A stretch of 64,000 bases of DNA from Sphingobacteriaceae bacterium GW460-11-11-14-LB5. Lineage in GTDB: Bacteria; Bacteroidota; Bacteroidia; Sphingobacteriales; Sphingobacteriaceae. The stretch covers positions 496,001 through 560,000 of the forward strand of contig CP021237.1 in NCBI GenBank assembly GCA_002151545.1, in the 5' to 3' direction. Below, piece after piece: positions 58,356 to 62,066 of the stretch (the first letter of the stretch is position 1; each line of letters begins with the position of its first letter). A model generated the notes under the pieces. It ran no database searches. It was given only the letters and a program-made list of their open reading frames with translations, and had not been told where the DNA came from. Position numbers and translations under genes: made by a program.

Positions 58356-59198
58356 TTAATTAGTGTAATGTTTTAATAAATTTTGTATTGGTTCTTTAAT
58401 GATGCTTTTAATTGTGATGTCGTATTTATTAGCCACCAGCTTTAACCGGTCTTCGAGCTCTGCAGCTACTTTACCTACAATATGTATATCCCGGTCGCTG
58501 TATTTTTCGGCCATTGGTAAAACATAAGTTTTAATATATTTTTCAAAGCCCTCGTCAATCAGCCTGCGAATATATTCGTGTTTGCTGTTTTGGGTAATGA
58601 AATCAAAAAAAGAAGTTAAAAATATATTGGCCTGTGGCTTATTATAAATACGTTCTAATATCTGAGGGCGGTCTAGATTGTAATTCAGCATGAATTTGGT
58701 TTCGATATCCTTAGGCATTTTAAGACTTAGGAATTCTTTAAGAAGTATTTTCCCAAAATAATTCGAAGAACCTTCATCACCCAGTATGTAACCTAATCCA
58801 AAGTTGTTACTGATTGGCTTTTTTCCATCGAAGTAGGCACAGTGTGCACCACTTCCCAGCATGCCAACAATACCGGGTTGATCATAACAGGCTGCTTTAG
58901 CGGCGCCAAATAAATCATTTTCTACTACAATTTTACTGTATTTGAAAAACGATGATAGGGTTTTGGCTAATTCCTCTTTTCTGTCTGCTGACGATGCACC
59001 AGCTGCAAAAAAATAAATTTTCTTTATATTTTCTGCGTTGTTAACCAAAGCAACTTTTTTGTTTAAAATCTGTAAGATCGTTTTTGGATCAACAAAGCAA
59101 GGGTTTAGGCCTGTAGTATTACAATGTGCTACTACCTGTCCATTTTGTGTTATTTTCCAAAATGCTGTTTTTGATCCGCTATAAACAACTGCTACCAT
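58356..59198 (-). CDS. BadF/BcrA-type sugar kinase homologue with a degenerate phosphate loop
   Basis: 280 residues with the actin-like fold of N-acetylglucosamine kinases. Where the paralogue at 61206-62066 has IADGGSTKTNW, this one has [11 protein letters not shown], losing the Asp and one residue of the phosphate-1 motif; GTGTNS reads GSGAHC. The [10 protein letters not shown] motif remains. It may be a poor kinase or a sugar-sensing pseudoenzyme. Sits between pfkA and gap, 1 base and 8 bases away, so tightly co-expressed with glycolysis. Confidence 0.75.
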
Positions 59199-59199
59199 A

Positions 59200-60186
59200 T
59201 TATATTGAAAGTACCTCTGTCATTTCCATTAAATCGGGCTCGAGTTTAAAAGAATGAGCGGTTAAAGCCTCTCTTATGCTGGTTAATTTTATTTCGTTTC
59301 CTTTTAAACCTACCATTTGCTCCGTTTCGCCTGCAATTAACGCATTTACTGCGGCAAAACCTAAACGACTGCCTAAAATTCTGTCGAAACTGCTTGGGCT
59401 ACCACCACGTTGAAGGTGGCCCAGTATCGTTACTTTGGTGTCGTAATGGTCAAAAGTTTCTTTTACTTTTTTTGCAATATCATAAGCACCGCCTTGTTTA
59501 TGGCCTTCGGCCACGATAACGATACTTGATGATTTTTTTGTAGCTGCGCCTAAGGCCAGTTTTTCAATCAATTCAGTTACACTGGTTTCCTTTTCTGGTA
59601 ACAAAACAGCTTCGGCACCGCTGGCAATTGAACTTCTTAGTGCAATACAGCCAGAGTCGCGGCCCATTACCTCTATAAAGAATAAACGGTCGTGTGCATC
59701 GGCAGTATCTCTGATTTTATCAATCGCTTCGATTACAGTATTAATAGCCGTATCGTAACCTAAGGTAAAATCTGATCCCACTAAGTCATTATCAATCGTG
59801 CCCGGTATCCCGATCACCTTAACGCCGAAAGTTTCTGAAAAGCGTTTCGCTCCGGTAAATGTTCCATCACCGCCGATTACCACTAGTCCATCAATGCCGT
59901 TTTTCTTTAAGTTATTGTAGGCAATCTGTTGACCTTCGTCTGTTTTAAACTCTAAACAGCGTGCAGTTTTTAATATGGTACCACCCAAGTGTAAAATATT
60001 ACTTACAGAACGGGCGTCCATTGGTTTTATGTTGTCGGTAATTAAACCCTGGTAACCTTGCATTACACCAAACATGTTAATGCCATGGTAAATTCCGGTA
60101 CGAACAACAGCTCTGATTGCAGCATTCATTCCAGGGGCGTCGCCTCCAGAAGTGAGTACAGCTATATTTTTTATATTTGGCTCCAT
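59200..60186 (-). CDS. pfkA: ATP-dependent 6-phosphofructokinase
   Basis: 328 residues. GGDAPGMNAAIRA (ATP loop), GGDGTFTGA, GTIDNDLVGSD (catalytic Asp) and FIEVMGRDSG. The Gly in GGDGT is typical of ATP- rather than pyrophosphate-dependent enzymes. It commits fructose-6-phosphate to glycolysis. Operator site C lies 17-37 bases upstream of the ATG, followed by a TATATTCG box. Confidence 0.95.
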   Translation of the reverse strand: MEPNIKNIAVLTSGGDAPGMNAAIRAVVRTGIYHGINMFGVMQGYQGLITDNIKPMDARSVSNILHLGGTILKTARCLEFKTDEGQQIAYNNLKKNGIDGLVVIGGDGTFTGAKRFSETFGVKVIGIPGTIDNDLVGSDFTLGYDTAINTVIEAIDKIRDTADAHDRLFFIEVMGRDSGCIALRSSIASGAEAVLLPEKETSVTELIEKLALGAATKKSSSIVIVAEGHKQGGAYDIAKKVKETFDHYDTKVTILGHLQRGGSPSSFDRILGSRLGFAAVNALIAGETEQMVGLKGNEIKLTSIREALTAHSFKLEPDLMEMTEVLSI

Positions 60187-60202
60187 CTTTATAACACGAA
60201 TA

Positions 60203-60223
60203 TAGTGTGTATTTTTTACACTA
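60203..60223. promoter_or_regulatory. GTGTA-N5-TACAC operator, site C, divergent pfkA / Nudix-regulator region
   Basis: Core GTGTATTTTTTACAC (60207-60221) with TACACTA on the right arm. It sits just upstream of the pfkA TATATTCG box on the minus strand and 75 bases before the Nudix-regulator gene on the plus strand, so one bound protein could control both. Confidence 0.65.
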
Positions 60224-60297
60224 AGTAATTTATTTTATTTTTTTTACTTAATATTGAAAGTCATACCTTTATCTGCTTAAAATAACTAAATTTTACT

Positions 60298-60987
60298 TTG
60301 GAACAAATTTTACCTCATTTAGATTCTGTATTCTCGATAGATTGCGTTTTGTTTGGATTTGATGGTAAGGAATTAAAAATCCTGCTAATTGAAAGGAATG
60401 AAGAACCGTTTAAAGATTGGTGGGCATTGCCCGGTAACATTGTTGGCCCTGATGAAAGTTTAGATCAATCAGCCTCCCGGATTTTGTACGAACTTACTGG
60501 TTTGCGTGGTATTTACATGGAACAGTATTATGCTTTTGGCGATCCGCACAGGCACCCCCAGGGTAGGGTAATTACTTTGGCTTATTATGCCTTGATCCGT
60601 TTGGGTGGCGATAAAGAGCTGAGGCCGATTAGCAGCTATGCCAAGCGAGCCAACTGGCTGCCAATTACTGATCTGCCTAAACTGGCTTTCGATCACCAGA
60701 AAATTTATGACAAAGGATTAGAAAAAATAAAACGCCGGATTAAACACCAGCCCATTGCTTTCGAACTCTTGCCGGAAAAATTTACTTTAACGCAATTACA
60801 GCATGTTTATGAACTGGTGCTGGGTAAAAAACTCGATAAAAGGAACTTTAGAAAGAAAATTGTGAGTTTTGGCGTGCTAAAGGAGCTTGATGAAAAACAA
60901 AAAGGTGTTTCTTATCGTGCAGCTACTTTATACCGTTTTGATAAACGTAAATATGCCAAACTTTTTGGTAAGGAGATTTCGTTCTAG
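60298..60987 (+). CDS. Nudix-domain transcription factor (NrtR/AraR type)
   Basis: 229 residues from TTG 60298. N-terminal Nudix fold (about 10-140) and a C-terminal winged helix (about 155-225, FTLTQLQHVYELVLGKKLDKRNFRKKIVSFGVL), the NrtR architecture. The Nudix box reads LPGNIVGPDESL...RILYELTGL, where two of the metal-binding Glu of REUxEExGU are Ile and Leu, so hydrolysis is unlikely and the domain probably senses a ligand. In Bacteroides a relative (AraR) controls arabinose genes. The GTGTA-N5-TACAC sites around it are its likely operators. Confidence 0.82.
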   Translation: MEQILPHLDSVFSIDCVLFGFDGKELKILLIERNEEPFKDWWALPGNIVGPDESLDQSASRILYELTGLRGIYMEQYYAFGDPHRHPQGRVITLAYYALIRLGGDKELRPISSYAKRANWLPITDLPKLAFDHQKIYDKGLEKIKRRIKHQPIAFELLPEKFTLTQLQHVYELVLGKKLDKRNFRKKIVSFGVLKELDEKQKGVSYRAATLYRFDKRKYAKLFGKEISF

Positions 60988-61043
60988 CGGAGAGCGATAA
61001 GCGGAAGGCGTTTGGCGTTGAGCGGAGGGCATAGCGCTAAAGT
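60987..61043 (+). repeat. Heptad-period tract with GC units
   Basis: GCG or GC begins every 7 bases from 60987: GCGGAGA, GCGATAA, GCGGAAG, GCGTTTG, GCGTTGA, GCGGAGG, GCATAGC, GCTAAAG, eight units in exact phase. The first base is the last base of the regulator stop codon. A less regular stretch (AAGACTA, AAGCGCT) follows to about 61100. Confidence 0.75.
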
Positions 61044-61122
61044 AAAAGCTAGATGTGATAACGGAGGACTTGAAGACTAAAGCGCTGAAAGACTAATACA
61101 ACTGAATAACTTATAAAAAAAG

Positions 61123-61153
61123 AAAATCCCCGGTTTGAAATCGGGGATTTTTA
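61123..61153. terminator. Bidirectional terminator between convergent genes
   Basis: AAATCCCCG (61124-61132) pairs with CGGGGATTT (61142-61150), 9-base loop, T-rich on both strands. It separates the Nudix regulator from the second kinase gene. Confidence 0.9.
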
Positions 61154-61168
61154 TTTTAATTCGTATTT

Positions 61169-61210
61169 GACTGCGGACTAAAGACTCCAGACTTAGGACT
61201 GAAAACTAAG
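61169..61210 (+). repeat. Heptad-period tract with GACT units
   Basis: GACTGCG, GACTAAA, GACTCCA, GACTTAG, GACTGAA, AACTAAG at 61169, 61176, 61183, 61190, 61197 and 61204, exact 7-base phase. It runs into the 3' end of the kinase gene on the minus strand. Confidence 0.75.
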
Positions 61211-62066
61211 CCTTAGGCGCTAGCTCCAGGTGGTAGTGAACCAAATCATCTATAGGTGAGCGGATAATTTTACCCACGCCCATTTCGTAACGGTCGGCTA
61301 CAATACTTAAAATATCACGGAAACTGTAACCTACAGAACCTACACAGTTTAACTTGTGATCTTTGTAGTTTGGATAGTGAATAACCAAAGCTTCGAAAAA
61401 TGCGGTAAATGCATAATCAATGGTTGCAAAGGCATAATCCTCGTAATTATCTTTAAAATCGTATAAGAATTTACTAAAGCTTGCGCAGAAACGGTTTGGC
61501 AATGGCTTGTTATAAATGTTATCGAAAATATCTTCGTTAGTTAAAGCGTAGTTATCATAAAAAGCTTCACGTAAGCCTTTCGGCATATAACCTTTCATGT
61601 AATCGCTTAAGATACGTTTACCAATGTACGAACCGCTGCCTTCATCACCCAGGAAATAACCTAATGAATCGATGTTCATGGTGATTTCAGATCCATCGTA
61701 AAGACATGAGTTAGTACCGGTACCTAAAATAGCAGCAAATCCTGGCTCGTTTCCAAGGAGTGCTCTAGATGAAGCAAGTAAATCATGGCCTACAAAAATG
61801 GTTGCATTAACAAAGATTTGTTGCATGGCATCAGCCACAATCTTAACATTTGCAGGTGTAGAACAGCCGGCACCGTAATAGTAAACTGCTGTTAATTTCT
61901 CTCTTTCCAAGTGGTCTGGAAGAGTCTCATTCAAAGACTTTACAATGTACTCTCCTTTTGAAAAATATGGATTGTAACCTTCGGTGTTAAAGTAAATTTT
62001 TCTGCCGGCCTCGTTAATCAAACACCAATTTGTTTTGGTAGATCCGCCGTCTGCAATTACTATCAT
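61206..62066 (-). CDS. BadF/BcrA-type kinase, N-acetylglucosamine kinase-like
   Basis: 286 residues from ATG 62066 (MIVIADGGSTKTNW); a GTG 24 bases upstream is in frame but falls next to a TACTTTTA -7-like box. Phosphate-1 DGGSTKT, phosphate-2 GTGTNSCLYDG and GYFLGDEGSG are complete, unlike the paralogue at 58356. Likely phosphorylates N-acetylglucosamine or a related sugar amine in the cytoplasm. Operator site D lies 104 bases upstream. Confidence 0.8.
   Translation of the reverse strand: MIVIADGGSTKTNWCLINEAGRKIYFNTEGYNPYFSKGEYIVKSLNETLPDHLEREKLTAVYYYGAGCSTPANVKIVADAMQQIFVNATIFVGHDLLASSRALLGNEPGFAAILGTGTNSCLYDGSEITMNIDSLGYFLGDEGSGSYIGKRILSDYMKGYMPKGLREAFYDNYALTNEDIFDNIYNKPLPNRFCASFSKFLYDFKDNYEDYAFATIDYAFTAFFEALVIHYPNYKDHKLNCVGSVGYSFRDILSIVADRYEMGVGKIIRSPIDDLVHYHLELAPKA

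What the first reader, a model, noticed from the sequence alone, without database searches (positions are those of the whole stretch)
58356..62066. A BadF-type kinase pair in which one copy looks like a pseudoenzyme placed between pfkA and gap
The copy at 61206-62066 has an intact DGGSTKT loop; the copy at 58356-59198 has YSGSKTA and GSGAHC instead of GTGTNS. The altered copy is locked between pfkA and gap with spacings of 1 and 8 bases. Both lie near GTGTA-N5-TACAC sites. A sugar- or nucleotide-sensing role coupling hexosamine status to glycolysis is possible.
Basis: partly seen in the sequence, partly recalled or inferred. Interest (0 to 1): 0.55.

Follow-up and report, generated by a model that had tools for sequence, protein, structure and literature searches.

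The report
Conserved dead-looking sugar kinase in glycolysis
Bacteria related to Pedobacter keep, between two glycolysis genes, a sugar-kinase copy whose ATP-gripping residues have been replaced while its sugar pocket is kept, which suggests that it senses sugar for glycolysis rather than phosphorylating it.

Summary
58356-59198 encodes a full-length NagK/MurK-type paralogue, 1 base behind pfkA and 8 before gap, with YSGSKTA for DGGSTKT. The altered first loop is no strain quirk: by score the orthologue is in 105 of 121 family genomes and in none of 377 others of the class sample, and the loop Asp is Tyr/Phe in 81 of 81 non-redundant rows. Positions that touch ATP in T. forsythia MurK have lost their conservation; sugar-contact positions have not. 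dN/dS is 0.04-0.08. Best reading: a silenced sugar kinase kept as a sugar or sugar-phosphate receptor, made in step with PfkA and Gap. Inactivity, ligand and partner are inferred. The hexosamine link has no support here, and GSGAHC is local (most orthologues have GSGSN). The GTGTA-N5-TACAC sites outline a predicted glycolysis regulon of a Nudix/NrtR-family regulator: the pfkA operon (76 of 80 loci, at most one mismatch), pyk (exact in 20 of 25 genomes), in near relatives the intact kinase, and a small-RNA candidate downstream of gap. New variant of a known kind.

The parts
58356..59198 (-). altered NagK/MurK-type sugar-kinase paralogue (predicted pseudoenzyme)
   Evidence: AlphaFold2 model pLDDT 92.3; fold matches
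59200..60186 (-). pfkA, ATP-dependent 6-phosphofructokinase, first gene of the operon
   Evidence: TIGR02482 419.3 bits over cut-off 371.35
57349..58347 (-). gap, glyceraldehyde-3-phosphate dehydrogenase, third gene
   Evidence: ORF; name by eye, not scanned against a library here
60298..60987 (+). Nudix + winged-helix transcriptional regulator of the NrtR/AraR family, divergent from pfkA
   Evidence: PF21906, PF19368, PF00293 over cut-offs; AraR 5bs6 E 5.4e-54
60207..60221 (.). predicted operator GTGTATTTTTTACAC between pfkA and the regulator gene
61206..62066 (-). intact NagK/MurK-type sugar kinase paralogue
62172..62186 (.). predicted operator upstream of the intact kinase
56947..56961 (.). 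predicted operator upstream of the small-RNA candidate
56760..56919 (-). small-RNA candidate, ends approximate: promoter-like TATATTTG at 56924-56931 (motif recalled), core CAGGTTTATATTTGGTTAG 56800-56818, terminator hairpin 56769-56793

Best explanation
The protein is a sugar-kinase paralogue that has lost the means of using ATP and is kept as a sugar-binding regulatory protein of glycolysis. Seen in sequence: Asp and Thr of the first phosphate loop are replaced by a conserved aromatic (Y/F) and mostly a basic residue (R/K), the adenine-stacking Tyr is mostly gone, ATP-contact positions drift, while sugar-contact positions (N32, G67, D95, N119, D141 in MurK numbering) and the predicted fold are kept under purifying selection, and the gene almost always sits between pfkA and gap. 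Inferred: it closes on a hexose or, with R/K where ATP phosphates would lie, on a hexose 6-phosphate, and in that state modulates a partner made from the same mRNA, most likely PfkA, less likely the Nudix regulator or the intact kinase. Bulky F/Y at the place of MurK S133 argues against MurNAc as ligand.
For: By score the altered-type orthologue is in 105 of 121 family genomes (loop read in 70 of these loci) and in 19 of 19 family and 0 of 377 other genomes of the class sample (at least 429 bits against at most 300.4). Position 6: 57 Tyr, 12 Phe, 0 Asp, 1 without N-terminus, of 70; Y84 F16% of 81 non-redundant rows, position 10 R54 K20 N20 H4%, T116 to Ser 100%, D95 100%, D141 100%. Mean entropy at ATP-contact positions 1.35 against 1.46 for the protein (p=0.31, random position sets), at sugar-contact positions 0.77 (p=0.0014); in the intact copy 0.12 and 0.27. 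dN/dS 0.037-0.082 over five pairs. One clade, 19 rows, 100/100, stem 1.01. pfkA-altered spacing median 4 bases (119 of 123 at most 30), altered-gap median 6 (106 of 124 at most 30), of 125 loci that carry it, some from the same genome. The model fits the MurNAc-bound K1058 best, Z 36.2. Residue roles from PMC10465942.
Against: No biochemistry. The third copy, whose loop keeps Asp, also has weakly conserved ATP positions (p=0.07), so the entropy test alone does not prove loss of ATP use. The loop Asp is not strictly needed: K1058, a slow but active kinase, has Glu there (PMC10465942). Ser at 116 and the catalytic Asp-95 are compatible with catalysis. Two loci keep the altered gene without pfkA beside it (L084, L085). 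16 of 121 family genomes lack it, and 7 of these 16 run pfkA next to gap without it. No partner is known. The model's weak stretch (residues 131-140, mean pLDDT 54) is the sugar loop.
Confidence: 0.55

Rival explanations
1. It is still an enzyme: the changed loops serve another phosphoryl donor (for example PPi or polyphosphate) or a slow, specialised kinase reaction, with the catalytic Asp-95 kept.
For: D95, D141, E142 are 100% and S144 99% of 81 rows; Thr-116 becomes Ser, a mild change; a basic residue at position 10 could hold phosphate. K1058 binds MurNAc tightly, turns it over slowly and has Glu for the loop Asp (PMC10465942).
Against: Loop Asp, Thr-10 and the adenine-stacking Tyr are lost and ATP contacts drift.
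Confidence: 0.2
2. It is a regulatory subunit that forms heterodimers with the intact kinase at 61206-62066 (or the third copy) and tunes its activity.
For: MurK is a dimer with F34/F35 and C-terminal helices at the interface (PMC10465942); the intact gene lies in the same cluster, behind its own operator copy in near relatives.
Against: Positions 34 and 35 vary in the altered copy; its gene is joined to pfkA and gap; several named loci have no intact gene in the fetched stretch (for example L100, L107, L116, L121).
Confidence: 0.12
3. It is a structural partner without a ligand, for example a scaffold that holds PfkA and Gap together.
For: Place between the two genes with near-zero spacing.
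Against: A scaffold would not need a conserved sugar pocket.
Confidence: 0.1
4. It is a decaying pseudogene carried in a strongly expressed operon.
For: It evolves faster than its neighbours (dN 0.041-0.160 against 0.003-0.055 for pfkA); 16 of 121 genomes lack it; G103 has a frameshift in a T-run, real or an assembly error; in L085 the loop has drifted further.
Against: dN/dS far below 1; open full-length frames in 104 of the 105 genomes; new near-invariant residues N132 and N146 and the aromatic at 6.
Confidence: 0.03

Closest known systems
MurK and K1058 of Tannerella forsythia (PDB 8oqw, 8ow7, 8oqk; PMC10465942)
   Same: Whole fold (Z 34.8-36.2 over 274-276 residues), sugar-pocket residues, catalytic Asp-95
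   Different: 26-30% identity; first phosphate loop, adenine stack and lactyl-ether region changed; murK lies in a murTKQ operon, not with pfkA and gap
The two other copies in the same genome (61206-62066 and G000:C1:4406385)
   Same: Same family and length, 30-35% identity
   Different: Both keep D-x-G-S-[TS]-K; each belongs to its own clade
ROK-family repressors such as Lmo0178 (5f7r)
   Same: Sugar-kinase fold used for sensing; distant fold match, Z 16.2
   Different: They carry a DNA-binding domain (recalled); this 280-residue protein aligns to the kinase domains over its whole length
AraR of Bacteroides thetaiotaomicron (BT0354), for the neighbouring regulator
   Same: NrtR-family Nudix plus winged helix (PMC4666351, sections 11 and 14 read)
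   Different: AraR controls arabinose genes and binds L-arabinose; here the predicted targets are glycolytic and the ligand is unknown
Gal3 of yeast and DhaQ of Lactococcus (recalled; the one search for DhaQ gave nothing usable)
   Same: Kinase paralogues that became sensors or coactivators
   Different: Other protein families and other pathways

Membership tests
NagK/MurK-type bacterial sugar kinases (active enzymes) | Two-domain hexokinase/actin-like fold | tested here: met
   model pLDDT 92.3; K1058 Z 36.2, rmsd 1.6 over 276 residues
NagK/MurK-type bacterial sugar kinases (active enzymes) | First phosphate loop DxGxT | tested here: not met
   Y/F for D in 81 of 81 rows; R/K/N/H for T in nearly all
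NagK/MurK-type bacterial sugar kinases (active enzymes) | Second loop G-T-G with Thr-116 | tested here: inconclusive
   Ser in 81 of 81 rows, which may substitute
NagK/MurK-type bacterial sugar kinases (active enzymes) | Adenine-stacking Tyr-244 | tested here: not met
   A46 G19 S11 D7% of 81 rows
NagK/MurK-type bacterial sugar kinases (active enzymes) | Catalytic Asp-95 and sugar contacts N32, N119, D141 | tested here: met
   100, 99, 96 and 100% of 81 rows; in this strain N119 is His
NagK/MurK-type bacterial sugar kinases (active enzymes) | ATP-dependent phosphorylation of a hexose | not testable with these tools
   needs an enzyme assay
Pfam PF01869 (BcrAD_BadFG) | Match over the curated cut-off | tested here: not met
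   altered copy: no match at E<=0.001; intact copy 29.1 bits against 31.5
NrtR/AraR-type Nudix regulators (gene 60298-60987) | Nudix domain plus NrtR/AraR winged helix | tested here: met
   PF21906 99.8, PF19368 58.5, PF00293 48.8 bits, all over cut-off
NrtR/AraR-type Nudix regulators (gene 60298-60987) | Binding to the predicted operator and to a small-molecule effector | not testable with these tools
   operator inferred from conservation

The most novel reading that the evidence does not exclude
Sphingobacteriaceae run a dedicated glycolysis control circuit: a Nudix/NrtR-family regulator with a GTGTA-N5-TACAC operator governs pfkA-pseudokinase-gap, pyk, an intact sugar kinase and a small RNA, and the pseudokinase is a cytosolic hexose or hexose-6-phosphate receptor that feeds sugar status directly to PfkA or to that regulator.
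Probability: 0.3. Interest if true: 0.75.

Novelty: new variant of a known kind. Interest (0 to 1): 0.52.

Why it matters
A silenced sugar kinase fixed in the pfkA-gap operon of most of a bacterial family is a concrete, cheaply tested candidate for a sensor of central glycolysis, and the operator set gives a testable regulon with a small RNA. It would be a bacterial parallel to kinase-turned-sensor cases such as Gal3 (recalled). If the protein proves active instead, it would show that the DxGxT loop can be dispensed with in this fold.

Tried and rejected
Strain-specific oddity: rejected. Pseudogene: unlikely on dN/dS and open frames. Altered copy tied to the exact operator: considered because the alt-less genera g5, g8 and g20 showed no exact site, but g8 has the related palindrome TTGTAAATTTTACAA in the same place and L199, outside the family, has pfkA, a divergent Nudix gene and an exact site with an unaltered kinase; regulator and operator seem older than the altered copy. 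GTGTA-N5-TACAC as a genome-wide signal: 14 sites against 15 for the reversed control, so most scattered sites are probably chance; only sites conserved across genomes are claimed. Origin: outside the family an unaltered kinase directly follows pfkA in L196, L200, L202 and L213, but the deep place of the altered clade is unresolved (36/8). Gain or loss: on a quick tree, weakly rooted, g5 and g8 fall outside the clade with the altered gene and g20 inside it, read as one gain and at least one loss; the alt-less g6, g9, g21 and G052 were not placed, as their pfkA stands away from gap. Loop display failed for L145, L168 and L211. Rfam, gathering threshold: no match at 54000-64000. Glucokinase role: the genome has ROK-family matches at 8 places, so it need not rest on these kinases; not pursued. 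Papers: ten full-text searches of the open library, several with capped listings, showed me no report of this pseudoenzyme, of a Nudix regulator of glycolysis in Bacteroidota or of this small RNA; only four papers were opened (PMC10465942, PMC4666351, PMC3878776, PMC7366714), none in full.
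Full report
OBSERVATION. On the minus strand the order is pfkA (59200-60186), altered kinase paralogue (58356-59198), gap (57349-58347), with gaps of 1 and 8 bases. A divergent regulator gene lies at 60298-60987 and the intact paralogue at 61206-62066. The two paralogues are 30% identical over 280 residues. The window lies at 496001-560000 of a 6.18-Mb single-contig genome, which holds a third copy at 4406385 with the loop DSGSSK.

WHAT FAMILY. The nearest solved proteins are MurK and K1058 of Tannerella forsythia, PG1100 (1zbs) and Q8A1P1 (1zxo). A model of the altered protein (42-row alignment, mean pLDDT 92.3, pTM 0.88) matches K1058 with MurNAc at Z 36.2 and MurK at 34.8; Foldseek ranks 1zbs first. 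Residue roles come from PMC10465942: active site, part 1 of 2, discussion, architecture, K1058.

HOW CONSERVED. In the sample of 121 family genomes an orthologue of the altered type is found by score in 105 (my count; the other 16 are G004, G005, G007, G008, G020, G021, G026, G027, G029, G030, G042, G043, G045, G052, G054 and G055). Its loop was read in 70 of these loci. One of the 105, G103, has a one-base frameshift in a run of T, real or an assembly error. In a class sample of 396 genomes the 19 family members score 429 bits or more and the 377 others at most 300.4 with the altered-type profile. Where my script displayed the loop of outside kinases it was D or E before x-G-S (not displayed for L145, L168, L211). 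Most outside kinases were judged by score only. L107, titled Flavihumibacter, has the contig length of G019, a member of the window's family. Loci of the two collections partly repeat the same genomes.

WHAT CHANGED. In 70 rows position 6 (Asp in the active kinases) is Tyr in 57, Phe in 12 and missing in 1. In 81 rows at most 85% identical, out of 124 longer than 262 residues, position 10 is R54 K20 N20 H4%, position 12 Ala 96%, T116 Ser 100%, Y244 A46 G19 S11 D7%, N146 99%, N132 96%; D95 and D141 are 100%, N32 99%, G67 100%, N119 96%. S133 is Tyr/Phe in 97%, bulky where MurK needs room for the lactyl ether. ATP-contact positions have mean entropy 1.35 against 1.46 for the protein (p=0.31 on random position sets), sugar-contact positions 0.77 (p=0.0014). 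In the intact copy (14 rows) the values are 0.12 (0 of 5000 sets as low) and 0.27 (p=0.0012); in the third copy (18 rows) 0.87 (p=0.07) and 0.47 (p=0.0008). So the sugar pocket is kept and the ATP grip is not; the third copy's weak ATP signal is a caution. K1058, active but slow, has Glu for the loop Asp, so loss of Asp alone proves nothing.

SELECTION AND HISTORY. dN/dS against five near relatives is 0.037-0.082, 1.5 to 5 times the intact copy's in the same pairs. dS of the altered gene is 1.0-2.0, often higher than its neighbours' in the same pairs, so the ratios are rough. Altered (19 rows), intact (14) and third (16) copies are each one clade with 100/100 support. On a pfkA-gap-regulator tree g5 and g8 lie outside the clade with the altered gene and g20 inside. 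In g5, g8 and g20 (7 of the 16 alt-less genomes) pfkA is followed by gap within 125 bases; in the other 9 no gap was found within the 1.5 kb flanks.

CONTEXT. Among 125 loci with the altered gene, pfkA lies in front at a median of 4 bases (119 of 123 at most 30) and gap behind at 6 (106 of 124 at most 30). L084 and L085 keep altered gene and gap without pfkA. In L085 no regulator gene or site was found in the stretch, and the loop has drifted to YSDSDG; n is 1. The regulator is a Nudix plus winged-helix protein of the NrtR/AraR family, which in Bacteroides governs arabinose and xylose genes (PMC4666351, sections 11 and 14 and passages; PMC3878776, passages). GTGTA-N5-TACAC with at most one mismatch stands between pfkA and the regulator gene in 76 of the 80 loci that have both, of 83 examined. 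Before pyk it is exact in 20 of 25 genomes that I chose: 13 of 13 of the window's genus and 7 of 12 others (about 0.001 expected per stretch from the 14 sites of this genome). An exact copy stands before the intact kinase here and in several near relatives. Control by the Nudix protein is inferred from position and conservation.

SMALL RNA. Downstream of gap, 12 Pedobacter sequences share operator, TAnnTTTG-like box and the core CAGGTTTATATTTGGTTAG before a terminator. The terminator stem has changes on both sides at several pairs among 16 sequences, which supports a transcript. The core, one mismatch allowed, is in 38 of 121 family genomes, 16 of 16 of the window's genus and 22 of 105 others, and the reversed control in none; not every hit is followed by a terminator (L226). 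Rfam has no match. GibS of B. thetaiotaomicron, a GlcNAc-induced small RNA (PMC7366714, passages), is a parallel in function only.

MECHANISM. Most likely the protein takes a hexose or hexose 6-phosphate into the kept pocket, closes as MurK does on sugar (abstract and sections of PMC10465942), and passes that state to a partner from the same mRNA. PfkA is the first candidate by position; loci without pfkA next door and genomes without the altered gene weigh against an obligate PfkA subunit. Shown: conservation, residue loss, predicted fold, gene order. Inferred: lack of kinase activity, ligand, partner, regulation.

VERDICT. A real, family-wide pseudoenzyme candidate under selection. The hexosamine idea has no support beyond family names. 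New variant of a known kind; interest 0.52.

Noticed in passing
window 56760-56919 (-): Small-RNA candidate downstream of gap with its own operator and TATATTTG box; terminator covaries in 16 sequences; no Rfam match at gathering threshold.
   Followed up: partly
L214-L223: The related element CAGGTTTATAATTGGTTAG plus terminator ends repeated tRNA-like units (GGTTCGAxTCC arm...TACAGCA), roughly 400-900 bases apart, in genus g19; nature unknown.
   Followed up: partly
L224, L227, L228, L229: The same element almost directly behind a TAnnTTTG-like box, predicting RNAs of about 65 nt.
   Followed up: no
L012:1501-1515; L260-L284: GTGTA-N5-TACAC upstream of pyruvate kinase, exact in 20 of 25 genomes.
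   Followed up: yes
window 42850-42864: Another exact GTGTA-N5-TACAC, 119 bases before a gene that by eye resembles a glycoside hydrolase; not scanned, conservation not checked.
   Followed up: no
L102 near 6858: In Pedobacter frigoris the small-RNA core begins about 12 bases after gap without a separate site, so it may there be a 3'-UTR product of the operon.
   Followed up: no
L196, L200, L202, L213; L199, L208: Outside the family an unaltered kinase of this type directly follows pfkA; in L199 pfkA, and in L208 the kinase, faces a Nudix gene across an exact GTGTA-N5-TACAC, so pairing and operator look older than the altered copy.
   Followed up: partly
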